DNA from: Membranipora membranacea
Taxonomy: Eukaryota > Bryozoa > Gymnolaemata > Cheilostomatida > Membraniporidae
Reading direction: 5' to 3'
Length of the DNA: 64,000 nt
Assembly (NCBI GenBank): GCA_914767715.1
Contig: OU612071.1
Coordinates: forward strand, 24,115,681-24,179,680
The notes below the pieces were generated by a model. It was not told the origin of the DNA and made no database searches. It worked only from the letters and a program-made list of their open reading frames with translations. Of the stretch, positions 6,340 through 62,124 are shown piece by piece (position 1 is the first letter of the stretch; each line of letters opens with the position of its first letter). A program made the position numbers and the translations under genes.

Positions 6340-6900
6340 AGTACTCAGTATACATTATACAGTACACAGTACTCAGTACTCAGCACGCAGTATGCAGTAA
6401 ACAGTACTCAGTACTCAGTGTAAAGTATACAGTATACAGTAATCATCAGTACTCAGTACACAGTACTCAGTACTCAGTACTCAGTACTCAGTACTCAGTA
6501 CTCAGTACTCAGTACTCAGTACACATTACACATTACACATCACACAGTACACATTAAACAGTATGCAGTATACAGTACACAGTACTCAGTACTCAGTACT
6601 CAGTACTCAGTACTCAGTACTCAGTACTCAGTACTCAGTACACATTACACATTACACATTACACATTACACATCACACATCACACATTAAACAGTATACA
6701 GTATACAGTATACAGTACTCAGTACACAGTACTCAGTACACAGTACACAGTACACAGTACACAGTACACAGTACACAGTACACAGTACACATTACACATT
6801 ACACATCACACAGTACACATTAAACAGTACACAGTAGACAGTATACAATATTCAGTATTCAGTACTCAGTACTCAGTACTCAGTACTGATTATTCAGTAT
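6340..6900. repeat. Heptanucleotide satellite (CAGTACT)n with variants
   Basis: About 560 bp built almost wholly of 7-bp units. Three main unit types occur in blocks: CAGTACT, CAGTACA and CATTACA/CATCACA, with interspersed CAGTATA. The block order (CAGTACT run, CATTACA run, CAGTACT run, CATTACA run, CAGTACA run, CATTACA run) indicates higher-order duplication of a composite of blocks as well as simple slippage. Because 7 is not a multiple of 3, each frame gives a seven-residue peptide repeat; this produces a spurious ORF. Confidence 0.95.
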
Positions 6901-32949: not shown

Positions 32950-34689
32950 AGCTAGCATGCATAATTAAGGTGTATGCCTGTATAATTGTACATTGTTTAT
33001 TAAACTATGGTGAGTGAGTTTAATTTAAGATACACTAAATTTCGCAACCTAGGCAACAACGGGCGAAAAGCGAATCCTAAATGCCCGAAAACTAAACTCC
33101 TATAGGGTAGGCCTAAGGTAGTATAGTTTAAGTAATCAGCCAAAACTGCCAATGAAGAGTTCATCTCCAACTGACTGAGTGGTGACAAAGTGAATATCAA
33201 ATTCCAGCTAGCTAGTGCTATGTTGTCACTTCACTCTGACTGATCATATCCAACCAAGTACCCATTCCCTATCCACTAAAGATAAACAACCCATTTTGAC
33301 TCTGAGAGAGATCAAGCAGGAGTGGGGAAACTTTTCAATATGGAGTAGCGTTGGTTGGGTGGTTGGCCATCAATAATGTTAAGTTGGATGGATGAAGACA
33401 TAGTTCTTCTTTCGCTTTTTGATCCAGAACCATAACAAGTTCTGTGACAAATGCCTGCATTTCAAGTTCCTCCCATTTTACTAGTGACACCAGAAGCACA
33501 TCCAAATGCAGAATTGGATAAAACTAGGGATAATTACATGACATACACTGTGACATTGCATTGACTAGATTGGAAAGCAAGCAGTATGTGCTTGACACAT
33601 ACTTGACTTACTTCTCTACCTCCAGAAAAATGTTAATATAATTTGCATATATTTGGAGTTGCTCCCCCTCCAGCCATCCACACAAGACAGCATCGTTTTA
33701 TTTGGATTTTACTAGGATTGGACCAACAGGAAATGCAGGGGTGAAAATATTTTAATTGATATACAAGTAATATTATAATCATGTGGGAATGTGCCAACAG
33801 TATTTACAGCTATGTTTTTTAATTGTTATTCAGCAGACTGTTTGTACTGCAATGGTTGTCTGCACTTAATTTTTTGTAATAGAGGAGAACTCCGAAGGCA
33901 CCTGGGTGCCTTTCTCAAGAATTGGACGTGACAACCCTGTCACAACCATCCAATGAGTTCATCAACACTCATGTATCTTAAAAATTTGAATGTGAGGTCA
34001 CCCACTGGAAGTTAATGTTAAGTGACAAAGTTGAGTAAATGTTGGCTAGCCATAATTTTGTTACTTCCAGTCATCTTCTCGAAATGCAAATTTGTCCTAT
34101 TGAATTAACATTACTCCACTACAGTAGCCCCATCATGTAATTGGGGTCCAATGGTATTGAAGTAACTCACGGTTTAATCTCCTGACATTTTCTGACGGGA
34201 AGCCATGGTTTATTAGCTACTGAGTACCATCAAATCATCTTCTGATCTAAACCCACATATTATATATATATATATATATATATAAATACAGGTGTGAATA
34301 TTAAGACATTTATATATCACTATATATACAATAGAACGATAAACTTGATAATACATAATATTCAGGATAGTTGTCTAAAGATGATTTAAAGTAAATTACA
34401 CCTTTAGCGGCGGCGGGAGTCTGGATAAAGAAAAGAGAGCAAATGTTAGCTTGCTTTAAATTTAGCAATTTGTGAATTTTACCTGCTGCAAATACTTAAC
34501 TCCCTCAGGGTATACACAGTGTTACATTGACTGCCAGCAACTCACATTTCGGCACATATTATATAATATATTGACCACGGACCAAGTTTGTTTCTCCCTG
34601 AAACAGCTGAGGTCGGCTCAACGAATATGAATGGTTGAGGATGAATTTTTTTTCGCAATTCTTAGTTTTGGATTTTTTTACCAGATGAA
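32950..34689. other. Non-coding interval
   Basis: No gene recognised. An (AT)n microsatellite sits at about 34,258-34,283, shortly before the left end of the large transposon. Confidence 0.45.
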
Positions 34690-34761
34690 TTAATACCATA
34701 GACTTAATATACTACCTAGACAGGACAATGCTTATGCTTCACTGATCATAATGTGTCCCAC

Positions 34762-34765
34762 TTAA
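34762..34765. repeat. TTAA target duplication, left copy
   Basis: TTAA immediately left of the nested element; its partner is at 37,813-37,816. The unoccupied version, CCCACTTAAAGAC with a single TTAA, is preserved in the right-hand TIR of the large transposon (reverse strand, about 50,942-50,960), which proves the duplication. Confidence 0.9.
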
Positions 34766-35703
34766 ATAGCACGACATGACGTAATTAGTTTGTGCTGTGA
34801 GGCATAGTTTACTATATACCATTCAATGAAATAATGTGAAAAATCAAGGGACGCCGCGCATGATATCAGCTCTTGTCCGGCCCCTAATTATTTAAACACA
34901 GAGAAAATTTGTGAGTTTGTGTAAAAGACCGTTCCGCACGAGATGGTATAAAAATTGACTCCTTAGGCGAATCTAGAGCGAGAACAGACCTGATAAGTTA
35001 CAATCATTAGCCAATAAATACTGAAACAAATACAGCCATCTACCACTACTATTCAAATGCACAGAATACCCACAACACAGTATCACAAATATTTTGTTGG
35101 ATGAGCCAGATCAAAGCACCACCACCATCATCATCGATTTTTGCATAAATATTCCTAGTCATGACTGAGCACAACCTGCTCAGCTTGGATTCCTTGTTAC
35201 AAGTTTTTACTGCAATTTTTTTGTCGCTTCATGAGGAAGAATAGATCTGTGCTGGAAATTGAGTATGCCAACTCCAGGTATGTATGTATGTATCATGAAG
35301 CTAGGGTACGTGGCACATATATATATATATATATTAAGTCTATGGTCATCTCTCATCAATGAAATAATATAGTAAATCAAGGCACGCAGGGTATAATACC
35401 AGCCAAATTATATTAGATCTGTTTTAATTTATGAGATACAAATTATCAAAACAAATACAGCCCTGTACTGAAACAGAAGATGAAAGATACTATGTAAACA
35501 AAGTGGTTACTGGTTTTAATATTCATACTTCGTTGAGATTATTTATTTATATAACGTGAACCTGCGTCCTGCAGCCTGCTGTCTCATCTTCACAAGAAAG
35601 CCCAGCTGCAATTTTACTATCATCAGTTGCGAGATACAAGGCAAACATAGAAGTTCTGGATATAATACCCACGCCGCTCAGTCTATAGGAAAACTATTTT
35701 TAA

Positions 35704-35835
35704 ATGAGCCTACAGCCTGCTACCTCGTCTTCACAAGATGATAATCTGGCTGCCTCATCTTCACAAGATGATAATCTTGCTGCCTCATCTTCACAAGATG
35801 AAAATCCTGCTGCTACCACTTCACAAGATGATAAA
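35704..35835 (+). CDS. Ser/Gln/Asp-rich repeat exon in nested element
   Basis: It opens with an ATG and encodes 44 residues made of a 10-residue repeat, roughly AASSSQDDNL, three to four times, and ends at a GTAAGA donor (35,836). At DNA level the repeat is 30 bp, with CATCTTCACAAGATGATAAT as core. A related but out-of-frame sequence lies upstream at about 35,560-35,620. The phase does not fit neatly onto the THAP ORF downstream, so a spliced product is unproven. It may be a linker exon of the ancestral transposase or simply a coding minisatellite. Confidence 0.35.
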
Positions 35836-36322
35836 GTAAGAAACAGCCCAGTGGTGGCTCTCATGTATGCATTGTCATATTTCCGTCTTTATTGGATTGA
35901 ATTTTTTGGCATAATTTCTGCTTGTCCCATCCATCTAAGATCTAAATCAATTAAATATTGTCATATAATAATACCCACATCCTTCTATACATGCACATAA
36001 ATTTAAGGCTATAGACATAGTAAATAATAATCGATGGGTGTGATAAAATTTGAATGTAAGAAAAAAAAGGTGGAACGATAGTGATGGGGCGGGGGGGGGG
36101 GGGCTGGAGGGAAACTATTTGAGATGACAATTCTGATTTACTCCCGAAATATCTAACTCAGAACTGGCACAGCAGTCAAAAAGTGTGAGTAGACTTAATC
36201 GGTGATCTCGCAAATCTTTCTTGGCCATGCTGATGCTCCTATGAAATTGATTTGACAATTTCTGTTTATCATATCAAAAGCTGTAGTTTAATGATAATTA
36301 TTTGTATATGTTATCATTTGTG

Positions 36323-36643
36323 ATGCTTTTAAAAAAGTCATCTAGAAACTGGTGTGCTGCCTACGGCTGTGGAAATACCCCGGCAGGAAATCCTAATTTA
36401 AGCTTCCACGCCTTCCCCAGAAATAACGAGGAGAGACTAAAGGTATGGGTTTCGGCCGTTAAACGCAAATATGCTGTTCTATGTAGCGAACATTTGAAAC
36501 GAGATACATTTAGAAGGCCTCCTGGTGTGGGTGGGAGAGCTTTGCTCAAAAAGGATGCTATCCCAACAATTTTCCAATCCTTCCAACACTATCTACAAAC
36601 CCCTAAAAGTGAAGAGATATACGCTGGTCAGAATACACCATGA
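36323..36643 (+). CDS. THAP-domain protein in nested element (THAP only)
   Basis: About 106 residues. From the chosen ATG (36,323; two earlier in-frame ATGs exist from 36,302) the protein begins MLLKKSSRNWCAAYGCGN, a canonical THAP start. Ordered hallmarks: the C-x4-C pair in CAAYGC, FHAFPRN, a Trp in KVWVSAV, the C-x2-H of LCSEHL, and the closing AIPTIF box. This is a complete zinc-coordinating, site-specific DNA-binding domain. The frame stops about 20 residues after the box. No catalytic DDE region follows in any frame up to the right arm. In a THAP transposon the domain recognises subterminal sequence; here it could act as a free DNA-binding protein that competes at, or marks, element ends. 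Such a role is inference. Confidence 0.75.
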   Translation: MLLKKSSRNWCAAYGCGNTPAGNPNLSFHAFPRNNEERLKVWVSAVKRKYAVLCSEHLKRDTFRRPPGVGGRALLKKDAIPTIFQSFQHYLQTPKSEEIYAGQNTP

Positions 36644-36689
36644 AACAACCAAACTCGCAGCAAACACTGACAATAAGCGCTCCAAACTG

Positions 36690-37030
36690 AGCAGGCTTAT
36701 TGTGTTCAGTGACTCAGTCATATCTAATTTTCAGCGATCGCTGATAGTGATAGTGTCTCGTTTGGAAATTTTGCAGCAATCACCGATAGTGGTAGTTTTC
36801 TAGTCTTTGACCCATCCGCAAAATTCAGTATAATCCCACAGTATATATTTTTTTTGATAAGTAGGTGTAAGAAGTGGTTAGCTTACATTGCTCTACTAAT
36901 TTGATTAATTTTAACGTATACTGCAACCAGTCATATCTAACTTTGCAATGCTCGCTGATAGTGGTAGTATTTTTAATTTTTGTCGTGCCCACAACAGCAA
37001 TAGTGGTAGCCGTTAGCCTTGGTCGTGCCC
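36690..37030. repeat. Imperfect internal duplication in nested element
   Basis: AGTCATATCTAA(T/C)TTT followed by GCTGATAGTG(A/G)TAGT occurs at about 36,716 and about 36,930. Related GATAGTGGTAG and AATAGTGGTAG motifs lie between and after. These may be subterminal binding-site repeats; that is inference. Confidence 0.4.
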
Positions 37031-37812
37031 TCATAAATTAGTATAATCCCGCAGTAACAGCCCTCTGTTTTGTCATGTAGTGATAAAAGTGGTTAAGTAC
37101 AGGGCTGTATTTGTTTTGATAATTTTTATCTCATAAATTAAAACAGATCTAATATAATTTGGCTGGTATTATACCCTGCGTGTCTTGATTTACTATATTA
37201 TTTCATGGATGAGAGATTACCAAAGACTTTATATATATATATATATATATGTCACTTACCCTAGCTTCATCATACATACATATCTGGAGTTGGCATACTC
37301 AATTTACAGCACAGATCTATTCTTCCTCATGAAGCGACAATAAAATTTGCAGTAAAATCTTTTAACAAGGAATCCAAGCTGAGCAGGTTGTGCTCAGTCA
37401 TGACTAGGAATATTTATGCAAAAATCTATGATGATGGTGGTGGTGCTTTGATCTGGCTCATCCAACAAAATATTTGTGATACTGTGTTGTGGGTATTCTG
37501 TGCATTTAAATAGTAGTGGTAGAAGTGTTAAGAGTAGATGGCTGTATTTGTTTCAATATTTATTGGCTAATGATTGTAACTTATCAGGTCTGTTCTCGCT
37601 TTGGATTCGCCTAAGGAGTCAATTTTTTATACCATATCGTGCGGAAAGGTCTTTTACATAAACTCACAAATTTTCTCTGTGTTTAAATAATTAGGGGCCG
37701 GACAAGAGCTGATATCATGCGCGGCGTCCCTTGATTCTTCACATTATTTCATTCAATGGTATATAGTAAACTATGGCTCACAGCACAAACTAATTACGTC
37801 ATGTCGTGCTAT

Positions 37813-38050
37813 TTAAAGACTTAGTTTGAGGGTAGGTTAATTATGTTAGGATTATGTTTCTTGACTTGATATCCCATGTGAGCAAGATACAGCAGGTGTA
37901 AACACTGATTTACAAGAGTTGTCATCTCTGGAAAAAAGTGGGTGTAACCCCCTTGGAATTATGTAACATTTGCAACATGGCCGATCACGTCACGTGATCA
38001 TATTGTGATGACATACTACGAGGGAATTAGCGAGCAAAGTTTTTTTCCAG
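37813..38050. repeat. Inner part of the left TIR of the large transposon
   Basis: Starting with the right TTAA copy, this segment matches the reverse complement of about 50,830-50,960, including TTTGAGGGTAGGTTAATTA and CATGTGAGCAAGATACAGC. Similarity fades after about 115 bp. The rest, up to the ballast-gene start, is probable promoter and leader; no TATA box was singled out. Confidence 0.75.
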
Positions 38051-38256
38051 CATCTCAGGAGTAGCCAATCAAAGTGTGTGAATTATAGCTCTATTTCCTC
38101 ATTGATTGTAAACAAGATTGGTGAGGATGAGAATACCTCAACCCGCAATTTATTCACTGATCATTTGACATTAAAATTAAAAGTCATTCATCGACAAGAA
38201 TCCAACAAAACGAGTCACACATTCCATAGAACATTTAATTTACTCCTTGCTTTATT

Positions 38257-39956
38257 ATGTCTTCATCTAGTTCCTCCAGCCTTGAGGCCCTGGACAACCC
38301 TTGGGATTTGCAGCCTAGAAGAGTTGTTGCACGAAGGCTGCAAGAGAATGTTGGGCAGCAGGAAGAGCAGCAACAAGAAGAGATGCCACAGCAGGTAGGA
38401 AATAAAAATGTCACTTGACTTGTAATTCCATTCAATAGCATACAGGGAATAAAATTTGTGGTATTGGTATGACAAAATTATTATCAACACTAAGCTTAGT
38501 AATTGGACAGGACAGAACCAATGAACTAAACCTTAGTTCATTGATTGAGGTTTAGTTCATTGACAGAACATAGACAGGGCTAGACAAAACTGTAACTTCA
38601 TTATTGTTGGAGTAAATGAGCAGAGCACAGAAGGCTTGCTGTAGACTAATAGAGAGCGATCAACTATACGAAACACTGCAAGTGTTGGATGTTTGCATAC
38701 AAGGAGTTACAGCTGCCTCCTTGGTGCATATACTACTGGCAGTCCATCGGTTCCGATGATGACTTCTGCTTCTGAATCAATTTGCGCTAACTCGCTCTGT
38801 TATTTGTCAGCTTCTGCCAACCATTTGTTGGTAATGTCGAGATATTTGAGACTCCTCTTGACTGTGCCCTTGTATCGCAGCTTTGGTGTATATAATATAT
38901 AATTATATATTATATCATATCAAGGAGTAACTCCTCTATTCCTCCTTGATTATATATTATGTATATCTGTGCTGATTTTGTAGGAGCAGATGGCTGTAGA
39001 TCTCAATCCAGAACGGTGCTTGTGTGGGAAGTGTCATATGTGGCCCGATCACCACATGAATAACTGCTGTGCTACGCACAAGATTTGGGAGCAGAAGAGA
39101 CCAGAGGAAGACATCAGGTGTATGGCTGACTCACAGGACGTACACGACCTCTTAAGACCTGCTCCACTGAGAGTTATGTACAGGAATTATGCCTGCCATC
39201 ATCGTAAGTATAGGCAAAGAGTAACAGTAAGTTACTCCTTGGTACAGGCGCTCAGTAACTATTAGCGTAGTAATGTTGTAATAAGCAATTATTTTGCTGA
39301 TCGCTCCCCAAAACAACAGTCAATTTAAATTAAACACACTAATACAGATCCAGGACTTGCCAAAACAATGCAAGTCAAAATCTGCTCATGTTTGTGTTGG
39401 GAGATAATTTTAATTGTGTGAAATCACTGGAGCACTCTTTATTGCAATGTGTGAGAGGTTTTTAAACCACTGATTACCACTCTCAATTTCCTAACTGTGT
39501 TCACTCTTCTGGCCTCTCAATCAACCAAATTATTTGCTAACAGTTGAATGAAAAGGTTTCTTGTTCGATCAATGAAGGGATTTGGAAATGAGACCGGCAA
39601 GTCTCGCCAACTCAGCAAAGAGTGATCATGTAACAGAGATTTCAGAAGTTTTCAATGGAATTCAATATGAAATGTCTGAACTTAGCTTCATAATCTCACT
39701 ACCAATATTTTTTTTTATCATAGCTGAACGATATCCTGATGCGGAGACACTGGTCCCCAGTAATGTCTGGTCTGAAGACCAGATCAACAGATTAAAGAGG
39801 AGACAGCAGCGCCTAGCTGCATATAGATCAATCATCTTTTGGACGTTTCCAGAGATAAGGAAGAAAGAGAGAAGACCTCTGCCATCATGTATATACATGA
39901 TGGTCAGAGCTTGCTATTTTGACTTGACTGTGTTTTCAAAATTGTTTTCAAAATGA
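38257..39956 (+). CDS. Ballast (P2X7 C-terminal-like) domain protein, 3 exons
   Basis: Exons 38,257-38,394, 38,984-39,203 and 39,724-39,956 total 591 nt, 196 codons plus TGA; the junctions are CAG/GTAGGA...TTGTAG and C/GTAAGT...ATCATAG, with consistent phases 0 and 1. Residues 1-48 are Ser- then Gln/Glu-rich. Residues 58-75 carry C-x-C-x2-C...CC (Cys 58, 60, 63, 74, 75) and a further Cys at 92. Exon 3 has LAAYRSIIFWTF at 150-161 and RRPLPSC at 169-175, then VRA. This order matches the zinc-binding ballast domain at the C-terminus of vertebrate P2X7, also found as stand-alone genes in invertebrates. No membrane segment is present, so it is a soluble protein and not a channel. The usual closing segment after the Arg-rich end is lost where the frame enters the minisatellite and stops. 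Candidate AATAAA signals lie at 40,043 and 40,075. Role in transposition unknown. Confidence 0.75.
38395..38983 (+). other. Intron 1 of the ballast gene with inverted repeats
   Basis: Contains a dyad CAATGAACTAAACCT / AGGTTTAGTTCATTG (about 38,518-38,561) and AAGGAGT/ACTCCTT hairpins at about 38,700 and 38,922. The first about 65 bp, including the splice donor, is copied into every unit of the downstream minisatellite. Confidence 0.6.
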
Positions 39957-40795
39957 AAATGAAAAGTCACGATGATTTCTTTGACGGGGATATGCCCTTC
40001 ATCGGTGCTTTCCCCCTGGAAATGATGCAACAGCAGGTAGAAAATAAAAATGTGTAATTATATAGCGTACATGGAATAAAAATTGACTTGACTGTGTTTT
40101 CAAAATTGTTTTCAAAATGAAAATGAAAAGTCACGATGATTTCTTTGACGGGGATTTGCCCTTCATCGGTGCTTTCCCCTTGGAAATGATGCAACAGCAG
40201 GTAGAAAATAAAAATGTGTAATTATATAGCGTACATGGAATAAAAATTGACTTGACTGTGTTTTCAAAATTATTTTCACAATGAAAATGAAAAGTCACGA
40301 TGATTTCTTTGGCGGGGATATGCCCTTCATCGGTGCTTTCCCCCTGGAAATGATGCAACAGCAGGTAGAAAATAAAAATGTGTAATTATATAGCGTACAT
40401 GGAATAAAAATTAACTTGACTGTGTTTTCAAAATGAAAATGAAAAGTCACGATGATTTCTTTGACGGGGATTTGCCCTTCATCGGTGCTTTCCCCCTGGA
40501 AATGATGCAACAGCAGGTAGAAAATAAAAATGTGTAATTATATAGCGTACATGGAATAAAAATTGACTTGACTATGTTTTCAAAATGAAAAGTCATGATA
40601 ATCTCTTTTACAGGGATTTGCCCTTCATCGGTGCTTTCCCCTTGGAAATGATGCAACAGCGGGTAGAAAATAAAAAATGTGTAATTATATAGCGTACATG
40701 GAATAAAAATTGACTTGACTATGTTTTTTAAACGAAAAGTAATGAGGATTTTTTTGACAGAGATTTGCCCTTCATCGGTGCTTTCCCCTTGGCTT
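39917..40795. repeat. Chimeric minisatellite, 146-164 bp units, about 5.3 copies
   Basis: Units begin TTGACTTGACT(G/A)TGTTTT at about 39,917, 40,083, 40,247, 40,411, 40,563 and 40,710. The first two steps are exactly 164 bp; later units carry 12- and 18-bp deletions. Each unit joins two pieces found elsewhere in this transposon. One is the antisense 3' tail of transposase exon 13 (GCCCTTCATCGGTGCTTTCC). The other is the ballast-gene exon 1/intron 1 junction (GATGCAACAGCAGGTAGAAA, compare 38,384-38,403). Both genes therefore end inside the array. Open frames on either strand here are repeat artefacts. Confidence 0.9.
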
Positions 40796-41227
40796 TGCCT
40801 TTTTTAGAGGTAACAATTACCTGGCTCAAATTGTCATCTGCTGCAGCTGAGCTGGATCTTCCTCTACCAGGCTGTTTCTTAGGCTTTGGAGTAGCTTGCT
40901 GCTCTGCTGCTTCAGCTGAGCTGGGTCTTCCTCTACCAGGCTGTTCTTTAGGCTGTGGAGTAGCTTGCTGCTCTGCTCCAGAGATATTGCCTCTGCCACG
41001 GCCGCGGCTCCGCCCTCGGCTTTCTGCATATCTTTGTGTCAGCGTAATGTGGTGAGGTTTTGCCAACCCACCTCGTCTTTTTTTTTCCATTTCAGCCTCC
41101 ACTTCTTCGATGGAATCGTATTGAGGTCCTTTAGACGCGAGTGTTGGAGGCTCAATATCATTGAGGAGAGGCCGTGTTCGGTTTTTTACATAACCATCCA
41201 GGCATTTGTACATGTCATCTATGTAAC
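40728..41227 (-). other. RG/Gln/Pro-rich repeat tail (transposase exon 13)
   Basis: After the end of the core (YIDDMYKCLDGYVKNRTRPL...) the exon encodes ESRGRSRGRGRG and then two copies of a roughly 23-residue repeat, EQQATP(Q/K)PK(E/K)QPGRGR, and a Lys-rich end. Arg-Gly and Lys runs suggest nucleic-acid binding or nuclear localisation. The DNA-level duplication (about 66 bp) is visible at 40,850-40,975. Confidence 0.75.
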
Positions 41228-41725
41228 CTGTAACAATTAGATTGAATTAATTAACTTCTTGTAAAGTTGAGCGGACTTCCAGTCAAGTGTAGTAGGTTAT
41301 CAATGTTTGCTGACTAACTACACCAGTTTGCAGTCTGAGCACTTGATGTCGGCTGGTAATGATATTTGGGTGTTTCCGGTAGTTGTGGCTCCTCAAAATG
41401 ACTAATAATACAACATTATGTTTTGGATGTTTCTGCAACTTGTTGTCTGGGGAAACTTTTTCAATTTACCATTATTTCATCATGATAATGAATTTTGACT
41501 CACTGTATGTGGCATCCTCTCTTACAAACTGAACTGTCGGGGTTTGTTTGGTGGCTTTCGAGCGGTGTATTACTTTCCTCGGTTTGGTAGGATCACTTGC
41601 CATCATCTTTACCGACCGTTGGCAATTTTCGTTGTGTTGTAAAATGGTCAGCTGTGTTCTAAAAATAAGTAGAGATTTATCAGATTATATTTATGAAACA
41701 ACCAAGCGTGTGAATTTCGCAGTAA

Positions 41726-41841
41726 TTTATTACTATTTTTCATGCTATAGACTACTAAGCACTTGTACAGACAGGTTTCATAAATAAAACCTGTCTGGTT
41801 CAAGTGCTTCGTTGGTGTTTAACATGAAAAATAATAAGATA
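41726..41841. repeat. Foldback in transposase intron 11
   Basis: Imperfect arms of about 50 bp around the core AACCTGTCTG / CAGACAGGTT, with AAGCACTTG / CAAGTGCTT further out and TTTTTCATG / CATGAAAAA at the edge. It lies between exons 11 and 12. A 22-bp direct repeat GCAATTTCAGTGTGATTCCC follows at about 41,850-41,900. Confidence 0.65.
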
Positions 41842-44800
41842 TTTCCGGAAATTTCAGTGTGATTCCCACGGCAATTTCAGTGTGATTCCCACGCTTGGAT
41901 GTTGCAAAATCAATCACAAAATTAATCCCCAATCAAAGTAAACTACCAAAAAGCTGTATGCTCGTGAGCCAATATATTGCAGTGTAGTTGGGTTATGTAA
42001 GTCACTAGTGGTCTCTAGTATATTTTTACATAATCCTTGTTGCTTTACTTTACTCATGGCAGTGGAATGGTGAACTTATGTTTGGCACTTTGGGATTAAT
42101 CATGATTGACCAGTGGGCCTACTTACTTGGTGTTCCTAAGATTTGTTACAACATATTACACAGGACCCACAACTATTATAGAAAAATTATCCCTGTTGTA
42201 ATCCACATGCAGACGGCCATGTGTGCATACCTAGTGTGTATAGTTAGCGCACCAGTCTGTGTAAAGTTCTTACCGTGAAAGCATTCCAGAGTAGGAAAAC
42301 CCCTCCATTTTGGGTGCATTACGGTTGAGTTCGCCATGAAAGCTCTCCAACTCTCCTGTCGAGGTCCCACTGGCCATGTTTATTGCCTCCATAAACCCTT
42401 TCTCCCACAGTACCTTTCTCGTTTCCAAGTCAAGCTGCGTATCTGTAATAAGGAATCACATGTGGCAACTTGATTCGTCTTTCAAAATAAATCATCGATT
42501 CAGAATTACGCATTTGTATGGCAAGTGCATAAGGAAACTTATTGCAGAATTAGCCACGTTCAAGACAGGTGTCTAAATAGCACTTATTTGCTGATCTGTG
42601 GGCCTGTTTCCTTGCAAATCTGGGTGGAAAATGCATAATCATAACAAACAGAGCAAAGGCTAATTCAAATGTCAACGAACCTGGAACAATCCACTCAACA
42701 ACAAGTTCTTCCCCTTACTCGTTGTACCGAACTTCTTCATCTGGGTGCTTACATTTTCCGATTCCGTCTCCTTCCAAGTCATGGATGTTGCAAATATGAT
42801 TTGCGCATGACTTCCACCATGCCATCCGTTGGTCACCTGGAGCAGTGTTGGTGATAACATGCCATAGGTGGGCTATAATGGCTGGTATCCAGCGGCCAAT
42901 TTGCTTGAACCCAACTTTCTTTGTGGACAACTTATTAAGTTTCTTCCGCAGTCCTACAACAGATTTGTTAACAAAAACATCAATAAGTAATCCATCAGAT
43001 GAGGATAACTGAATTCATAGTCACAATCTATCTATTTTCAAAATTCATTGTCATTTAGTGTAGGATTACTTTTCATGTCTCCTGTCTACAGCAACAGCAT
43101 TTATTTACTGCTTATTTGTGGTATTTCGACCAGGAAGAAACCACAGTGTCATGTCTTGTTTACATTGCGATAATATGATTATGCTATGAGAGTAGGGTGC
43201 ATTTATAATATTGTTATTGCGATGACTGTCTGCATGTGTGATATGGATGGATAGATTTGGGTGATAAAATATTTACGCTGAGTTCTATTAGGATAGAAGC
43301 TTCTATAAACATGATACAGTGTTACTTTTTGAGATTCTAGCATACCTTTTGTGAGATGCCAAGTATCAAAGTAGTGTTTGACAGCCTTCCAAGAATTCTT
43401 CATATACGCCTTTACACTGACGTGGCGGTCTGTTGTAAGCTGTTCGACAGCGACATTGTTTAGATCAAGATAGGCTCTACAGCGCTTTAGCCCCTCTAGT
43501 TCCATAGCTGAAGAGGAAGTTGTCTCTGTACACTGTGAGAAAAATAGATAGAAAAATGTGTTCATGCGCTAAAGTTTTGGCATCAAGTTATTCATAAAGC
43601 CAATGACGATCTTGTGTTATGTGTACACTGAAATAAATTCTTCTCATAGAACGGAATTATCAGGATAACCTTATACAGTTCGGACACTCAACACAGGGAT
43701 TGATCTGACATTGATCTGATCGGCTGTCCCTGCTAGCATGAATAATATAGCCTAGGAATTTATCTTGTTTTCAAAACTGCAAACAGTAATAAATTGCTTT
43801 CAGCGTCGATGATTTGGGCTTTTCTAGAATGCCACAGGGACTGGCTATTTTTGCAAACCCGTTGTTGGGCAAAATAAAGGTAATTACACCACTCCAGCTA
43901 TGGAGTTCAATGATTCTGTATCACACTGATGTCACCATCCACATTTATCCAAAACAATTTAATTTTCACTGTATGATGCAAGATAACTTACCTTTACCAA
44001 ACTGTTTGCAACAATTTTACTGGTTGCGGCACACATAAATGTGTAGATGCCATACATGGCACTGTGGCCAGGGGAGTCGAACCGCCCATCGCCATTCAGT
44101 TTTAGTGGCTGCTGTAGTTTGGCTCTCTCCTCCGCCATCCTCTTCTCATACACCTCCCTCACAACCTTAACAAAAGATAATTCAGACTATTAAAACCTGG
44201 AGATCCCTTAGTCAACGAAATAGCACAATGTAAATTCTGCTAAAAACCATCTCTGGCTACAGAAATCATAGATTTTTACTCTTTCAGCAATATAACATAA
44301 TTAGAACTCAGAAGGCCACATCTGCCATATGTTGTAAACACTATCACAGGTCATGGTCCATTCAGAGAACACTTAAACCAAATGAACATCGCTGACGAGT
44401 CTTCCTTGTTGAAATACATGGCTAAATATAGCTGACCTGAATTTAAAATAACTCGGACTTCTAGGCGGCCTGTCGCCAGCCTTTTATATCTTATGTCACA
44501 ACAAACAATCACTGTTATCATACACTGGTGGAGGGATATGTCAATACTTTTTGTCAATCATATGATTCCTTTTTATACATGTGCCTAATACCAATCGGTA
44601 TCTTAGCTAATATCTCCAGTCATGATTATCTAGCTCCAATATACACGCCGTAAAACCAATTCAATCTAACATTCCTGTCCTAAATGCGGTGCGTTATCTG
44701 CGTTATCGAACACAAATATTCACTTTATTTTTGACTGCTTAAATTACTCAAAATTCAGAGAGAAAACACTCAAAATAGATAGTATATCGAAACCATAAAA

Positions 44801-46526
44801 CACAACTTTGCATTAAGGTGATGGATCTGGCTGACTTTATAAAATTGTCTGATAGATTTACTACCATTATATACAAAATCAAATTTGTCCGCGGCCTTTG
44901 TAGACAATGAGTACAATACATCACCATATTCGGAATGATTTATCCCATTCCATCTCAATCCCCCTCACAAGACATAACATAATGGATCATAGCAACATGA
45001 TTTCTTGGAAACTTGACTTACCCCGTGTAGATACTCCCGTTGGTATTTGAAGAATGTACCGGGGCTCACTGTGGAGACATTCAGGAAGTTGAAGGCTCGT
45101 AAAAATTTAGTCGGAAGGCAGCCAGTGAAGAGTATGGTGTCACAGAGGAGGAGATTTAGAATGGGCACACCATTCACCTTTTCACTGTTAGCCCACTCTC
45201 TAACATGACCGCATTTGTCACTCTGGCAAGATATTTTGAAAGGCACGTAGCACCCATATGCCTGCTGCTGCTCCACCAAAGCCTCCATGCCACATCGTAT
45301 ACACGGCTTCAATAGTTGAAGGAGGTTGTCTTGGCAGACAATGAACTTCTTCTCATCATACCATGAAGTTCCCCTGTAAATATAAAAAAAAACCTGTCAA
45401 TATCCAACACAACATTGTAAGAACAATTTTCTAACCAGCTTTGTATATGTAGCTCCCTTGGAAGTGTTTACAGTTCATTTGATTTTTTTCTACAATTCAT
45501 CGTTATGTTATTTCGCGACAATAAAAAAACGCAGTGTGTTATCAAAAAACATTATTTCAAATTCCCGCTACTTTTATAATGATTTTTTATAGTAACTAGC
45601 ATATTTTAAGAATTTTCGACTTTCTTTCGATCATTGTTTATTGAAGCACAAAACCATTACTTTTATCGAGGAATTTCATTTCTTGTCTGAATATATCAAA
45701 TCAATAAAATAATTACACTCACAAAGTTTTGTACACTAATTCATTCTCCTCCATGTCATCTATGAACTGGACATTTTCTTCTGAGCTCGCCTCGTACTCA
45801 GAGCTGCCGTATTCATGAATCTGGTGAATACAAGGATATGCACTCAATACAGGTTTACATTTAAAACTTAGTAAAGGGTATATGGAATCTTCATAAAATT
45901 GACTACATCCATAACCCGTTATTGCAGCCAAGTCCAATGATCTTCACAAGGAGTCTGGAATGACGCCCTGAGTACAAACATCTGTACATGTGAGGGACTT
46001 AGACTAAACTGACATATTATGCTGATAGTTTAATCTGGATATCAGTGTGGCGTATAAAATCCATTTTTGAGGTTAAAAAAGGTGTCAATACCCTGCTGAA
46101 TTTTTCACAAAGACAAAGCCAACCTTTTTGTGAGAACTCGACTGGTACTCACAGTAGGAGCTGATGATGATGATGAAGCTTTTTCTGATGTGTCTGGGGA
46201 AGTATCTTGAGGATGATCATCAGCAGAAGGCCTAGATGGTGCAGGAACAATAACTATAGGTACTGGTTTAGCTGGCTGACTAGGAGATTTTATACTTTGT
46301 AGTCTTTTCACAGTTTTATTCTCTTCAAGTTCCTGTAGCCTTTTATCTGCTCTGGTCTCGCTGAAATTCTTTATACCAGTCCTAAAAGAAAAGTGTGGTT
46401 TCAAGTGAACCTGGTAAGTTCTTACATCCCCACTATGATGTTGGCAGACAGGATTACGTCATGTGATGTCAACTAATACAATACAAATTATATAATAATG
46501 CATCACGCAGTGAATTGAATTAGAGC

Positions 46527-46806
46527 AGGGCTGCCCAACCAGTAACCCTAGGGCTGCATGCGGCCCCATTTTTATGCGGCCCTCAACCCTTTTGATAAAA
46601 TCGCGTAGTAGCGAAAACAATTTTCACCCCTACGTTTATTACATTCGTCATTTGTACAATAATAAGGAAAGCTGTACATCTAGTCACAGTATTTTGAAAT
46701 AAATTCCCCGCTGCAGAGATGGAATACTGCACACCCATATATGTGTGTTTAATTTATGGTGAGGTTGCGGGGGGGGGGGGGCCCTCAATGAAAAGGTTGG
46801 GCACCC
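46527..46806. mobile_element. hAT-type MITE inside transposase intron 4
   Basis: Ends CAGGGCTGCCCAACC (left) and GGTTGGGCACCC (right) form short inverted repeats of hAT character. Internal GCGGCCC blocks mirror each other, and a long G run lies at about 46,768-46,782. No clean 8-bp target duplication could be read, so the right boundary is approximate. It lies between exons 4 and 5 and does not disturb splice sites. Confidence 0.55.
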
Positions 46807-47214
46807 AGAGTATCAATTTGACTTCATTAAACTGTGACAGTGCTTCATTCCAAAGGAGCGATGTGTTTAAATATGAATAATTAACTTACTGATTATATTC
46901 TGTCTGTGTGTGGATATTTGCTTGTTTGACAATATCAACCTGGCAAGCTAAAAGAGATAATAATAGAAATAATAAATATAAGAACCAAATTGAATATAGA
47001 CGCAATGGGCAGGCGTAGGTAAAAAAGTTGTGTAGATGATACAGCAGATATCAATAACAAACAGTTATCTAAATGAGAATGTAAATCAATGCATGATGGG
47101 GAAAGCAATAACATATCACTTCATGTTCCGTAGTTTTCTATCAACTGGTTGGGTTAACATTTAGTCAGCGAGTTACAGCATTGCATGATGCATGATTATT
47201 TTTATGAATTCTTT

Positions 47215-47259
47215 ACTCCTCTATGGTATTAATACCTGTTATGAATACCATAGAGGAGT
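47215..47259. repeat. Perfect 16-bp-arm hairpin in transposase intron 3
   Basis: ACTCCTCTATGGTATT (47,215-47,230) and its exact reverse complement (47,244-47,259), with a 13-nt loop. Function unknown. Confidence 0.85.
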
Positions 47260-50200
47260 ATCGTATTCGCATGATATAGATGCTTGAAATTTCTAAAATT
47301 ATTTCTATCAAAATTTTTCTCATCCTCTTTACTTTACGTAGACACCCACCCTAACTAACCAAGATCGATTGTTAGCTAACATTATGTCAAGGCAAGGCAA
47401 ACAAATAACTTGCAGCAATATTTGAAAAAAAATCCTCGTTATGTCATCCATTCAAAATTTGTAACATAACTCCTGAGCAACCGATTACCTACCCTGACTG
47501 TGCATGTGAACAGCACCATAAACTCTCAAAGGCACATCCACCATCCATCTAGGTCGAGTTTGACTGTCTGTTTGTACAAGAGATCTCAAGAAGACTGGAT
47601 TATCTGAAGATGGAGCAGGTGAGACTGAAATGGCGGGAGGCTGGTGAGTGTGAAGTAACATCTGTACTGGGTTGGTAGGGGTTGAAGACGTCGGCACTGC
47701 CTCAGACAGAGTTGGTATTGTATGAACCAATACATCATCAGGCTCAACATTGGTCGGGGAAGACGGATACAAGTCCAGATTGGGCAGACAGGGATCGGGG
47801 ACTTGTGACTGCAATGGAGAGGGAAGGTCTGAGCTCATGTCAAGTGCAGGTGCAGCTATTCCAGTCACTGGGGTTAAAAGGCTAACTTCAGACACCTCAG
47901 TTGTTTCCGAGTAAGGTACTTCTGAAGGAGAGCCCGTCTGTTCTCCAATAAATAAATAGCCTCCCGTCTGCTGGTGTACATCTGACTGGCTACTTGTTCC
48001 CTCACCAAGTGCAAGCGCTCGTCGGGATTTCTTAGCTGACCTGTGATAATTTATAAGAATTTTTCATCAGAGTAAAATCATTAAAAGCTTGGAATATATT
48101 TAGTTGTGATTAATTAGCTAGTAATCAACTAGCTTAGAGGTTTCTTAGAAGGGAACCCTGCTAATAAATAAAAATATTTGCAATAGATAAGGTGAGGGGT
48201 GGGTTTGTCTCATAATAATGGTACCGCACATTCAGCACTTTTATTAGTATTATATTAGTAAATTTTTTATATTCATATTTTTATATTTATTATTTATCCA
48301 ATCTAAAAATATCAGGCATCAGTTGGTAATAACATGTTTAGCATGTTATAAAGCTGGTATACCTCCTGATAGGCTTTGCTGTCAATGTGTTTTGATTAGC
48401 AGCTGCAGATTAATATGATTTATGTGTCAAACTTACGGCTCAGGGTCAGACAGAAGACTGCTAATGATAGACTCTCTCTCTTCCTTTGTAGGAGTAAAAA
48501 CATGCTTCTTTCTTGGTGTTGGCATATCATCAGGAACCACATATCCCGGTAACACTTCCCTATCGGTGCGCAGTTACATTCTGATGGCAACAAGAAAAAA
48601 ATTAAATGTTGTCAATGTGGCTATAAAAGTGCAGGTTATTCTAATAGGTGTAGTTTCCATATAGATCACTATTTTTATCAATCATAAAGGTCTAAACACA
48701 CTGACAGTAGCCTTGTTCACACAGCCAGTTTTGACCAAAAAAACCGAAACCCATGGCCACGTGTACAAGGCTACACTGACAGAGGATCAGCAGACGCTTT
48801 TATGTTAGTAATGTGATGTCATGTAAACTGCTCTGCACTCTGAGGTTGCAGCTGAGGATAGGCTGAGGCTGCTGACACCAAATGCGTTAACAATGGTGAC
48901 ATATAGTTGTGATAACCTCTGATGTTACAACAGGTAAGTGTGTTTTGACCATGACAGGAGTTATGTGGAGAATTTCAGTCTTTGACTGTCATAAATATCA
49001 AATCCTGATGAAACGACATTCAATTCTCTAACTATGTTTTGTCTGTTATAATAATCCTTTATCATAACAATTAAATGCAATACTGTAACTATTTTTAGAA
49101 ATCTTACACCTTTCCCTCTTACAACTTGACAATTCATGTAAGCTAGCGGACTAAACCAAACGTGCGCATACTATTTTTACGATATTAATAAAATTATATA
49201 CAGTTTCTCTGCTAGTTTTAGATAGTAAGTAAAGTACAAAAATAAAATCATAGCATAGTTGATAAACAACATATTTTTAGGCCTAGCTGGTAGCCTTGTT
49301 ATGAACAGACTTTTTGGCTGGCAGGTTGCCGTAAGGCTTTACGCGTTCATCCGTACAAGTTGGTGATTATGACTAATTAAGACAAGGCCATGCTGGCTAT
49401 CCTAACTTGAGGTAGAATTTCCCGACAGTTAGGTGTAAAGTATTTGTATATTATATCCGTATCATATCCAAACATTCAAGAAAGCATGACATTAAATGTA
49501 GTGTATGAAACAAAGGGGCAATGGTTTAACTGGATAAAAAAAAACCAAAGCATGTCACCGATGATGATCACTGTATAACAACTCACCTATTCTCGGCTCC
49601 AAGAACATATCTGGTGTAATTTCTGATGTCCTCTTTGTGAAAATGTCTCCAACATAAACGACTAGTTTGGATAAGTTTGAAGTCTCTGAATGACTCACGG
49701 ACCCAATCCACCCATTTTTGGCGAGTTATAGCATTGGATGGAAAAGTAAACAGGTGATGTATCTCCTCGCAGTTGGCAGCTGCACAAAAAAAAAACTCTT
49801 TTCTAGGCATCTGAAATAGAAAAATAATGATGGTAGTTATAACACCATAAATTTTTTATTGTTACTACTGGCATCGGGTTCCAGTGAATAATACTTGCCA
49901 AGTCTCCCTATTTAGGTGGGACCCTCCAGATTTCACTATCACTCCAGATCTCACTATTTCCTCCAGATTGACAGTAAAACCACAGTTTTTTAGTAACTAT
50001 CCAAGCACTTGTGATGTGTCCCAGGGGCCAATGTGTTGATGTAGTAAGTGCTCAGACTCGCAGGCGTAGGTTACCTGCGCAGGTTCCTGCGCCCTGGAGT
50101 ATGAGCACTTAGACTCAAGTGGGCAGCCAAACCTTGTCAGACATATTGCCAAAATCCCAGGTTTTGGAGTAGACCTGCGCTCTGTGATGGTCCCTGCTGT

Positions 50201-50285
50201 GCACACTAATTAATTCCAGAGCACAAGTACGACAAATTCATCATGATGAGCATTAATTGGTATTGTGTTGCTTTAAGACTAAGAA

Positions 50286-50328
50286 CACAGGTCTACTCCA
50301 AAATCCCAGGTTTTGGAGTAGACCTGTG
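50286..50328. repeat. Perfect 18-bp-arm hairpin near the right end
   Basis: CACAGGTCTACTCCAAAA (50,286-50,303), a 7-nt loop, then the exact reverse complement (50,311-50,328). Part of it, CCAAAATCCCAGGTTTTGGA and the following GTAGACCTG, also occurs at about 50,152-50,180. The block lies upstream of transposase exon 1, between the gene start and the right TIR. Confidence 0.85.
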
Positions 50329-50819
50329 ACTAAGAATATAATAGTATTATCCAAGTGATGCCTAGTAGTCGTCTGGTGATACTAGTATTTATTTATTTAT
50401 AGAGATTTTCTTAAAAGTGTATAGATAACAAAAGGTAACTTGTTGACCTCTGAAAACAGAAAAAAACATATCAAGCTTACTACCAAAGTTAAACACAATA
50501 TTCACAGTATAATTCACCTCTTGTCACAATGATTGTCTTTGACTTTGAGAGAGAAGAGAGTGTAATAACAGGTTATAATCCGACAGATTGTACCAACAAA
50601 CAATAAGTGAATATGTGTTAAGTGTTAGTTCAACCTTATTTTAAAACTAGTCAGCCACATCCATGTGAATTTCTCAACACTATGACAGAGAGACGACTGC
50701 TCTTTTGATTATGAACAAATCTCCTGGGGTGCGTCACATCCGGTGCTTTATCACCGTGGTTACAAGTAAACTTTTTGACGGATGACATCCGGCTGGTTCC
50801 CAAGGTGAAATGATGGCCA

Positions 50820-51005
50820 TAACTCCAAAACTTCAGGACCCCACAACTTCAGTTTGTTGTGATTTCACAGGCTGTATCTTGCTCACATGACAAATCAAGT
50901 CCTGAAAAAGAATCATAAATTAATTAACCTGCCCTCAAACAAAGTCTTTAAGTGGGACAGTATTGAATGCTATTGGCCTGTCTAGGTAGTATATTAAGTC
51001 TATGA
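50820..51005. repeat. Right TIR of the large transposon
   Basis: Reverse complement of 34,696-34,765 plus 37,817-about 37,930. It keeps the uninterrupted CTTTAAGTGGGAC, that is, the empty site into which the nested element jumped in the left copy. Confidence 0.8.
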
Positions 51006-51011
51006 TTAATA

Positions 51012-52237
51012 CTAATGAAAACCGTGTGAGCCCTCTTTCTTTCACCCTTTCTAGATATGTAGTTAGGGCACTGAGATCATTGCATTGGGAGCCGGATTCT
51101 AACATTTTGCCAAATTAAAAAATAACACATCATTTAAAAACCTGGTTTTCGCACAAAATTGCAGGTGAGTATAAACAAAAAACGGGAAGGATGGGACGTA
51201 GGCTATCAATTCTTCACTGAACAGTGTCATAGTGCTACGATTGCTCACAAGATATGGAGCAATGGCACCTTATAATCTAATCTGAAAATATACCGAAAGC
51301 GCTGCAGTTAAATCTATGATAAAAAAAGATTTGCCAGCCGTTGGTGAAGCATTTTTTTGACAGGAATATTTACTATCAAATCCCCATTTGAAGGCTATGC
51401 AAGGAAAACTTTGATGTGTTTTACTGAATTTTATAGCTGGTTTCTTGGAATGAAAACACTCGGGCTATAGGTTTGATCAGCACATAACGCCAGCAAATTT
51501 GTAACTAAAAGGATCAGTCCAGATAATGAGATGTGACAGGGAGGGTGGAATATAGGGATGAGATGACTTGATGTTGCGAGATGGAAGTTCTAGACAATTG
51601 GTTGCATGAGAGTTGCCCACCTAAACCTGCACAAATGGTTCCCATGATACACTAGTTTGAATCTTCTCTGAGAGACCAAATACAGAAAATTAATGATGAT
51701 ACTACCATGGAAAAAACTGAAACTCCCTGATATTACCACCACCAACCAACAAAAAAGAAAGGAGTAAACTGCTTGGACTTGTATGAGCGTAGTATGAGTA
51801 GTAGAGTAGTAGTGTACAAAATAAATAGCATTTTATTTTACCGGAGAGCTACAACAAATTGATTCAATCAAGTCCATTCACAGCTGTTCTAATTTCATTC
51901 TTCTTGTTGTGAAGCTGAGTTGGCTCATCATCTCTTCCTCGTGGTCTTATGTGTCTGTGAAGTTACTGATTGGGGGATTGGTGCCACTGCCTGCAGTTCA
52001 GAGAGTTGACTACTAGCAAAATCTATTACTAACTCAGTGTTCCCCAACACATATTCGTAATCAGTAGGCAGTTATTGAACAGGCCAATAAGAAAAAAGTA
52101 AGATGTAATCAAGGAGTCTGTACCTCCCTGCTGTAACGGTCAATCATAACAAAGCCTGTGAAAATGAGAGCAACTCTTCATTTTTGAAGGTTTTAACGTG
52201 AGAGTGCAATTCCGAACCGGTTACCTTATTACCCTGG
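51012..52237. other. Non-coding interval
   Basis: No gene or repeat boundary recognised; AT-rich sequence outside the large transposon. Confidence 0.4.
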
Positions 52238-60577: not shown

Positions 60578-61254
60578 ATGTCCAAGGCCATGGCTTGCTC
60601 AGATGCGTGTTGGACTGATCACAGGTTGATCAGGTCAATCATGTCATTCACGTTAAAGCCAAAATACAGAAAAACGAAACCAAATACCAGACCAAAGTAT
60701 AGACTTGACCGCCTCGACCAGCCTGATGTTCTTTGTGATCTCCAGGAGAAAATACGGGACTCAATCCAAGCTGCCGAAGAGACGCAAGATGTTACAACAT
60801 ACTGGAACAACCTGAAAGAAGCCATCACAACAAGCTGTGATGAAACACTCGGAAAAACGTGCTGCCTTCCAAACGTGGCAAGACGATTTTAGAAACAAGA
60901 CAAAGAAAACAGACTACCATCAAATCAGATCTACAGTTCAACGTCATGTCAGAGAGTTGAAGAACAAATGGTGGACAGACAAAGCAAGCGAACTACAGAA
61001 ACTGGCTGATCAGAATAAGAGTAGGGAGTTCTTTGCTGCGACAAGGAAACTGTATGGACCAACCACCCATGGAGTTAGACCCGTCATGGACAAGGAAGGT
61101 GTCCTGCACAAGGAAAATGACAAGATCAGTGAATGCTGGAAAGATCACTTTGATAGCCTGCTCAACCAAAACCCACATGTTGAGGATAACTTCTTCATAA
61201 TATGCAGAAATACCCCGCTACAAGGAGCTATCAGATGAACCTACCATAGACGAA
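60578..61254 (+). pseudogene. LINE linker region between endonuclease and RT, broken
   Basis: Three overlapping frames encode the lysine-rich region between the domains (DHRLIRSIMSF at the end of the endonuclease; RHVRELKNKWWTDKASELQ; FFAATRKLYGPTTHGVRPV). The overlap at 60,837-60,892 marks a frameshift, and a stop near 61,238 separates it from the RT. Confidence 0.75.
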
Positions 61255-62124
61255 GTGATTGCTGCCATCAATGCTATGAAAAATTGGAAGGCAGTAGGTC
61301 CTGATGGTATTCCTGCAGAGATATATAAGCATGCAGGCCCTGAGCTATCTGATAAGCTCCTCCAACTATTTCAGAAGATATGGCAGACCGAAACCCTTCC
61401 TGCTGACCTACGTGATGCACTTATTGTGACTATTTTCAAGAAAGGAGACAAGTCTCTCTGCGGAAACTATAGAGGAATATCTCTGCTAGCAATTGCTGGA
61501 AAGATACTGGCCAGGATTCTGTCAACGAGGCTATCGTCTGTTGCTGAAGAAGTACTACCGGAGTCTCAATGTGGTTTCCGACCGGGCAGAGGTACAGTTG
61601 ACATGATATTTGCAGCACGCCAAATACAAGAGAAGTGCCGTGAGCAATATCAAGAACTACACATGGCCTTTATAGACCTCACTAAGGCTTTCGACTCAGT
61701 GGACCGAGAGTCACTCTGGAAAGTCCTCTCGCTAATAGGATGCCCTGAGAAGTTCATCAAAATAGTCCGGCTATTACATGATGATATGTCAGCATCAGTA
61801 TTAGTTGATGGGCAAGGCTGTGTGATTGCTCCGACACTATTTTCTATATTCTTACTGGCTGTCTTGCATCTCGTGCGTCAGAGGCTACCACCCGGAGTCA
61901 GAATCCAGTACAGGATCGACGAACTATTCAATCTACGCCGCCTCAAAGCCAAGACAATGAGAACAAAGATCACCGTAACAGAGTTGCAGTATGCAGATGA
62001 TAATGCAATTGTGGCCAATACTGAACACGATCTTCAGCTGGCTATGGATGCCTTTTATTTTGCAGCCCAAACCAGGGATACCGGCAGGCCAAGTCCAGAA
62101 GCCCGAAATATTGGTGAAAGGTGA
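61255..62124 (+). pseudogene. LINE reverse transcriptase, internal deletion
   Basis: 289 codons open. Ordered RT motifs: NWKAVGPDGIPAEIYKHAGP (0), GNYRGISLLAIAGKILARIL (1-2), QCGFRPGRGTVDMIFAARQ, AFIDLTKAFDSVDRESLW (A, with catalytic Asp), then VDGQGCVIAPTLFSIFLLAV (B) and LQYADDNAIVANTEHDLQ (C, YADD). Between VDGQ and GCVIAP about a dozen residues usual in this family are missing, an in-frame deletion just before motif B. The catalytic Asp residues are all present. The frame then shifts into the segment starting at 61,991. Confidence 0.9.

What the first reader, a model, noticed from the sequence alone, without database searches (positions are those of the whole stretch)
34696..51005. A DNA transposon that carries a P2X7-ballast-domain gene beside a THAP-DDE transposase
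Seen: one pair of matching inverted ends encloses two spliced, convergent genes. One is a THAP-DDE transposase. The other is a 196-residue protein with C-x-C-x2-C...CC, AYR...W and RRPLPSC in ballast-domain order. Known: ballast domains occur as stand-alone genes in invertebrates and were fused to a P2X receptor in early vertebrates. Inference: if the gene travels with this transposon, mobile elements could be the vehicle that spread the domain, and the protein may assist transposition or handle host defence. I know of no described transposon family with this pair.
Basis: partly seen in the sequence, partly recalled or inferred. Interest (0 to 1): 0.88.

Follow-up and report, generated by a model that had tools for sequence, protein, structure and literature searches.

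The report
Kolobok transposon carrying KolX gene
A jumping gene in a sea-mat (bryozoan) genome carries a relative of the tail domain of the human P2X7 receptor next to its own transposase, a pairing already described for the Kolobok family of transposons.

Summary
The core observation holds: one DNA transposon carries a ballast-domain gene and, convergently, a THAP-DDE transposase gene. The boundaries and the novelty claim do not hold.

The window is chromosome 7 of the bryozoan Membranipora membranacea. The real transposon is 37,817-50,947, with its own inverted ends (5'-AG...CT-3') and a TTAA target duplication. The transposon jumped into a TTAA in that element's right arm; the uninterrupted junction exists elsewhere (73/73 nt in 11 of 14 loci).

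All 11 other copies with right ends over 99% identical carry KolX sequence. In 10 of 10 copies read at both ends the 4-bp flanks match (nine TTAA, one ATAA). Six of 12 near-identical copies encode an intact 207-aa ballast protein, which passes Pfam P2RX7_C. The window's own genes are damaged.

This pair is published: Kol0-lineage Kolobok transposons encode a DDE transposase plus KolX, which has the ballast fold; P2X7 was proposed to derive from it (PMC9587614). Verdict: a young bryozoan member of a known kind.

The parts
37813..37816 (.). left TTAA target-site duplication of the Kolobok-KolX element
   Evidence: TTAA|AGACTTAG; 10 of 10 copies readable at both ends have matching 4-bp flanks
37817..50947 (.). 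Kolobok-KolX transposon, 13,131 bp in this copy; four sister copies measured at 14,661-14,862 bp
37817..37905 (+). left terminal inverted repeat (5'-AGACTTAGTTTGAGG...)
   Evidence: (pair I6, 81% complementary)
38257..38394 (+). KolX (ballast) exon 1
38984..39203 (+). KolX exon 2, with C-x-C-x2-C, CC and the next conserved Cys
39724..39956 (+). KolX exon 3 (AYR...W, RRPLPSC); from about 39,924 the C-terminus is replaced relative to intact copies
39919..40792 (.). tandem array (period about 150-164 nt) at the convergent 3' ends of the two genes
40728..49810 (-). THAP-DDE transposase gene, 13 exons with AG/GT borders: 49810-49587, 48559-48437, 48040-47493, 46947-46890, 46381-46153, 45820-45723, 45373-45022, 44165-43992, 43532-43346, 42953-42681, 42442-42274, 41658-41504, 41227-40728; premature stop at codon 744 in this copy; model by eye and homology, no RNA evidence
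49587..49810 (-). transposase exon 1, THAP domain
   Evidence: Pfam PF05485
42274..44165 (-). DDE core: GDGRFD, TDRH, DTWH (DxxH), C/H zinc-finger residues, ELESFH
   Evidence: D570, D574, D637, D658, H661, H717, H722, H734 invariant and C732, E788 nearly invariant in 16 aligned proteins
50859..50947 (-). right terminal inverted repeat (...CAAACAAAGTCT)
50948..50951 (.). right TTAA target-site duplication
34697..37816 (.). second element (THAP element, about 830-nt inverted repeats), left arm and body; not part of the Kolobok
50948..51004 (.). outer tip of the right arm of that second element, split off by the Kolobok insertion
34689..34696 (.). 8-bp flank repeat ATTAATAC of the second element (other copy 51005-51012)

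Best explanation
It is a Kolobok-superfamily DNA transposon of the KolX-bearing (Kol0) kind in Membranipora membranacea. Shown: a family of near-identical 13-15 kb copies with short inverted ends, inserted at TTAA (once ATAA) in unrelated places, holding a THAP-DDE transposase gene and a convergent KolX gene of the P2X7-ballast family. Inferred: the transposase binds the ends through its THAP domain and moves the element by DDE chemistry (RNase H-like core with DxxH), duplicating TTAA. KolX is a zinc-binding accessory protein of transposition, perhaps binding a guanine nucleotide as P2X7's ballast does. The copy in the window inserted into the right arm of another THAP element and is now defective; intact sister copies exist. 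The confidence given is for the identity; I put the accessory role of KolX in transposition itself at about even odds.
For: Right-end search: 16 of 40 scored rows (window included; 403 candidates) share the Kolobok end, and 11 non-window copies are over 99% identical across 1.6 kb. KolX sequence is present in 11 of 11 of those. Matching 4-bp flanks in 10 of 10 copies read at both ends. Ends 5'-AG...CT-3', fitting the 5'-RR/YY-3' rule quoted in PMC9587614. Transposase: THAP and PF20700 above cut-off; catalytic and DxxH residues conserved in 16 aligned proteins. Intact KolX: PF20478 28.7 bits against cut-off 23.5, E 1.5e-6. Empty-site match 73/73 in 11 of 14 loci.
Against: No Repbase Kolobok sequence was available, so placement in Kol0 rests on KolX, the residue signature and the target site, not on a tree. 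One copy is flanked by ATAA rather than TTAA. Four older copies are decayed: KolX is only partial or frameshifted in two and was not found in the fetched stretches of the other two. Gene models have no RNA support. Nothing here tests what KolX does.
Confidence: 0.93

Rival explanations
1. One 16-kb element with 8-bp target duplications (P-like or hAT-like) runs from 34,697 to 51,004 and carries both genes.
For: 33-nt inverted ends (97% complementary) and a perfect 8-bp flank repeat.
Against: The right end splits into two repeats with separate genomic distributions, meeting at TTAA. Sister copies of the ballast element end at AGACTTAG/CAAAGTCT with unrelated flanks. The outer sequence occurs uninterrupted elsewhere (73/73 in 11 of 14 loci).
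Confidence: 0.02
2. The ballast gene is a host gene caught between or beside transposon ends by chance, or carried as passenger cargo in this one copy.
For: Stand-alone ballast genes are common in animals (173 relatives, 120 listed; PMC7016195).
Against: 11 of 11 near-identical copies at other sites carry KolX sequence beside the same transposase gene. KolX is a recognised second protein of Kol0 elements (PMC9587614).
Confidence: 0.03
3. KolX is not needed for movement but serves the element in another way, such as blunting host silencing or sensing cell state.
For: KolX keeps its frame in 6 of the 12 near-identical copies. In one comparison with an older copy, changes in KolX were less often amino-acid-changing than those in transposase exons 5-12 (9 synonymous/11 non-synonymous versus 8.5/42.5; Fisher p 0.014 on rounded counts).
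Against: That older KolX is itself frameshifted, the counts are small and one pair of copies was used; the second old copy had only exon 1 of KolX to compare. No functional evidence exists.
Confidence: 0.3

Closest known systems
Kolobok superfamily, Kol0 lineage (Kolobok-1_XT; KolX protein), PMC9587614
   Same: DDE transposase with DxxH and a C/H finger before the last acidic residue; TTAA duplication; 5'-RR ends; second gene KolX with ballast fold
   Different: Found here in a bryozoan; the Kol0 hosts named in the passages read are vertebrates, annelids, cnidarians and sponges. Large (about 14.7 kb), 13-exon transposase with a basic tail and convergent genes; I saw no Kol0 gene structure to compare with. 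KolX is divergent (19-26% identical to the 13 other family members aligned)
P2X7 receptor cytoplasmic ballast domain (Pfam P2RX7_C, PF20478)
   Same: cysteine clusters and AYR...W, LPSC core in the same order; Pfam match above cut-off for the intact copies' protein
   Different: stand-alone protein, no channel; encoded inside a transposon
NANOR and invertebrate 'P2X purinoceptor 7-like' proteins (PMC7016195)
   Same: same domain as a stand-alone protein of about 200 residues; nanor b is among the hits
   Different: annotated as ordinary genes; whether each is a transposon copy was not tested here
KolobokP (reported from this same species, PMC9587614)
   Same: Kolobok superfamily
   Different: KolobokP has long terminal direct repeats and a His-Me nuclease; this element has inverted ends and KolX

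Membership tests
Kolobok superfamily | TTAA 4-bp target-site duplication | tested here: met
   10 of 10 copies read at both ends have matching flanks: nine TTAA, one ATAA
Kolobok superfamily | termini 5'-RR...YY-3' | tested here: met
   AG...CT
Kolobok superfamily | DDE triad with C/DxxH between second D and E | tested here: met
   D570, D637, D658xxH661 invariant and E788 nearly invariant in 16 aligned proteins; a relative's model resembles, at low TM-score (0.28-0.33 by query), the DDE transposases ISCth4 and P element
Kolobok superfamily | zinc finger between DxxH and the last E | tested here: met
   H717, H722 and H734 invariant, C732 nearly invariant; metal binding itself not tested
Kolobok, Kol0 lineage | encodes KolX | tested here: met
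Kolobok, Kol0 lineage | groups with Kol0 in a DDE-core tree | not testable with these tools
   no reference Kolobok sequences held
P2X7 ballast domain (Pfam PF20478) | Pfam score above gathering cut-off | tested here: met
   28.7 against 23.5 bits for the protein of intact copies; the window's damaged copy alone reaches 19.5 and P0001 18.9
P2X7 ballast domain (Pfam PF20478) | seven zinc-coordinating cysteines | tested here: met
   C58, C60, C63, C74, C75, C92, C175 align with family cysteines; the eighth family cysteine (VCLN) is absent; metal not tested
KolobokP | long terminal direct repeats with their own TIRs | tested here: not met
   ends are inverted; one search listed no direct-repeat pair of the two element ends (for the inverted alignment)
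P superfamily | 8-bp target-site duplication | tested here: not met
   the 8-bp repeat belongs to the second element; this transposon has a 4-bp one

The most novel reading that the evidence does not exclude
KolX is an obligatory, zinc- and perhaps guanine-nucleotide-binding partner of Kolobok transposition, so the ballast domain of P2X7 is a tamed transposition factor. This young bryozoan family, with intact sister copies of both genes, would be a natural system in which to show that.
Probability: 0.25. Interest if true: 0.6.

Novelty: new member of a known kind. Interest (0 to 1): 0.25.

Why it matters
It independently confirms, with DNA-level evidence of mobility (many insertion sites, target duplications, an empty-site junction), that a P2X7-type ballast gene is standing cargo of a Kolobok transposon, in a phylum not listed for Kol0 in the passages I read. 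It supports the published view that P2X7 gained its tail from a transposon gene, and it points to a young family in which the unknown role of KolX could be tested.

Tried and rejected
One element from 34,697 to 51,004: rejected once the right end split into two repeat families at TTAA.

A P-superfamily home for the ballast element because of the 8-bp repeat: rejected for the same reason.

A TTAA element nested inside the left TIR (my first reading of 34,762-37,816, also in my notes): rejected; that stretch is continuous with the 34,697 tip in other loci, so it is the body of the second element. My note gives the empty-site count as 10 of 14; one search shows 11.

Ballast identity by single-sequence searches: weak. 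One search found only P0001; one search found nothing relevant in PDB sequences; the window copy alone is below the Pfam cut-off. A profile and the intact sister copies were needed.

Selection on KolX versus transposase: counts too small, and the older KolX is frameshifted; no conclusion drawn. A genome-wide count of KolX genes was not obtained (search tool unreachable).
Full report
WHERE THE WINDOW LIES. The genome search placed the window at G000:C7:24,115,681-24,179,680 in a 339,339,785-base, 18-contig assembly. The lengths of the eight contigs met here (C2 39.53, C3 35.04, C4 35.00, C5 29.96, C6 29.39, C7 28.51, C8 27.17, C10 24.42 Mb) equal the chromosome sizes in Table 2 of the Membranipora membranacea genome note (PMC10290214; passages seen). 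That note counts 21 scaffolds against 18 contigs here; the eight matching lengths and the 339.4-Mb total make the identification safe. The host is the bryozoan M. membranacea, chromosome 7.

THE BALLAST GENE IS REAL. Three exons with GT-AG borders give 196 residues. Its exons one by one had no Pfam hit, and the whole window protein reaches only 19.5 bits with Pfam P2RX7_C (cut-off 23.5, E 9.8e-4). A bait written from recall fetched 173 relatives; of the 120 listed, nearly all carry PF20478 and many are named P2X purinoceptor 7-like. A profile of 31 of them finds the window protein with hhalign probability 96.8 and E 2.5e-10, and with 44.3 bits against at most 8.1 in 500 shuffles. In a six-frame scan of the whole window, exons 3 and 2 are the two best hits (E 7.5e-8 and 2e-5; the next is 0.32). 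Seven cysteines align with the family's conserved ones; an eighth family cysteine is absent. The AlphaFold model of one relative (P0039, Mytilus) has P2X7 receptors as all 14 of its PDB hits at E 0.001 or better (TM-score 0.39-0.47 by query length); that model is of the relative, not of the window protein.

THE TRANSPOSASE. Thirteen minus-strand exons, with AG/GT borders and consistent phases, give a protein of about 1,029 residues with one internal stop (codon 744). The model was built by eye from frames and homology; no RNA data were used. It has an N-terminal THAP domain and a PF20700 'Mutator-like transposase' match, both above cut-off. Thirty-seven relatives came from the protein search, the best from the bryozoan Watersipora subatra at 38% identity; 10 of 37 have a precomputed THAP domain. 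Sixteen sequences (the window plus 15 of the 37) align with GDxRxD, TDR, DxWH and three histidines of a C/H finger invariant, and with the finger's cysteine and the final E nearly invariant. A model of the Watersipora relative resembles, at low TM-scores, ISCth4 transposase (four), the Drosophila P element (two) and foamy-virus integrase (four) among its ten PDB hits at E 0.001 or better.

Searching the genome with 50,859-51,004 gave 40 scored matches out of 403 candidates, and they split. The window matches throughout. Fifteen other rows match only query bases up to about 95, ending in ...CAAAGTCT|TTAA. Twenty-four match only from about base 86 on, TTAAGTGGGAC...GTCTATG. In the 14 of those 24 that were fetched, the sequence runs on across the TTAA into ATAGCACGACATGACG... 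or a close variant, which is the inner arm at 34,762 and 37,816 of the window. So CATAGACTTAATATA...TTAAATAGCACG... is one long inverted repeat of a separate element. Its two arms in the window, rejoined at the TTAA, align over 809 columns at 95% identity, and its flanks are the 8-bp repeat ATTAATAC (chance of two random 8-mers of the window being equal about 5e-5). Joining the two window flanks at one TTAA gives a 73-nt sequence found letter for letter in 11 of 14 loci, with one mismatch in 2 and 13 mismatches in 1. The ballast/transposase element is therefore an insertion of 13,131 bp (37,817-50,947) into the right arm of that THAP element, with TTAA on both sides.

SISTER COPIES. Eleven non-window copies have right ends over 99% identical across about 1.6 kb; four more are 84-96% identical. 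I fetched the far side of all 15 and extra pieces of 11. KolX sequence is present in all 11 young copies beside the same transposase gene; exon 3 is missing in one, and exon 1 of another lies beyond the stretch held. Of the four old copies, one retains only exon 1, one has all exons with frameshifts, and in two none was found in the fetched stretch. Both ends could be read in 10 copies, the window included. All 10 have matching 4-bp flanks, nine TTAA and one ATAA, with unrelated sequence beyond. KolX is an open 207-residue frame in 6 of the 12 near-identical copies (four identical, two with one substitution each); 4 are broken (window, C6b, C3, C7c) and 2 could not be read through by my script (C4, C7b). 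That intact protein reaches 28.7 bits with P2RX7_C, above its cut-off. In the window copy the C-terminus is replaced at about 39,924 and the copy is 1.5-1.7 kb shorter than the four sisters measured (14,661-14,862 bp). A 133-residue protein from an 846-base ENA contig carries the undamaged C-terminus. Of five transposase genes read, two are open to the end, one is open to residue 1,002 with an altered tail, and two are interrupted: the window, and one copy in which my exon-7 boundary was uncertain. Two of the five (C2, C6a) therefore encode both proteins intact, which points to recent activity.

WHAT IS KNOWN. Kojima and Bao 2022 (PMC9587614; sections 3, 9 and 10 and passages read) state that the original Kolobok families (Kol0) encode a DDE transposase and KolX, that KolX is similar to residues 476-595 of human P2X7 with the ballast fold, that Kolobok duplicates TTAA and has 5'-RR/YY-3' ends, that P2X7 originated by fusion with KolX, and that Nanor is likely a domesticated KolX. 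They also mention a few piggyBac families with a KolX-like protein. Rump et al. 2020 (PMC7016195; abstract and passages) described stand-alone ballast domains across animals; 'transpos' does not occur in its main text. Searches for KolX (1 paper), P2X7 with Kolobok (2 papers), and P2X7, transposase, THAP and transposon together (2 papers) showed me no other description; besides Kojima and Bao I saw passages of PMC9319628 (unrelated) and only the listing of PMC13093298. Kojima and Bao list M. membranacea for KolobokP, a different lineage; the hosts they name for Kol0 in the text I read are vertebrates, annelids, cnidarians and sponges.

MECHANISM. Shown: the element multiplies, inserts at TTAA, and carries both genes as a unit. 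From established knowledge of DDE/THAP elements: THAP binds the element's ends or subterminal DNA, and the RNase H-like core cuts and joins. Inferred: KolX acts as an accessory zinc protein in this. Its actual role is unknown, and a host-directed role is not excluded. A comparison of one older copy with an intact one gave fewer amino-acid-changing differences in KolX than in the transposase, but the older KolX is frameshifted and the counts are small, so I draw no conclusion.

VERDICT. Observation partly confirmed (genes yes, ends no). Interpretation partly supported (travels with the transposon: yes; undescribed family: no). Novelty: new member of a known kind.

Noticed in passing
34,697-37,816 plus 50,948-51,004: A separate element with about 830-nt inverted repeats (95% identical), CA...TG ends, 8-bp flanks ATTAATAC and a THAP open frame (36,353-36,643, Pfam E 1.1e-13); the transposase profile found no DDE core in it. 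Its tip is abundant (24 of 40 scored matches). Possibly a P-like non-autonomous family; the one other stretch with both tips in reach (L026, 662 bp) had flanks matching at 6 of 8 bases, so the 8-bp duplication rests on this copy.
   Followed up: partly
L031, L033-L035, L037-L041, L044, between KolX exon 3 and the transposase 3' end: These sister copies hold an extra 1.6-2.2 kb with repeats about 70-81% similar to the transposase's first intron (window 49,015-49,400); the window copy lacks this region.
   Followed up: partly
39,919-40,792: Tandem array of about 150-164-nt units containing a piece similar to the end of KolX exon 1 (38,377-38,411).
   Followed up: no
60,816-62,509: Non-LTR retrotransposon reverse-transcriptase fragments in overlapping frames (recognised by eye; no domain search run).
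   Followed up: no
6,334-6,886: Array of about 79 copies of GTACACA.
   Followed up: no
L013 1590-1754 and window 1-166: The flank of one older Kolobok copy is 95% identical to the first 166 bases of the window, so another repeat family lies at the window edge.
   Followed up: no
L010 / L039 / L049 (C8 copy): Flanks ATAA instead of TTAA on both sides, so the TTAA requirement is not absolute.
   Followed up: partly
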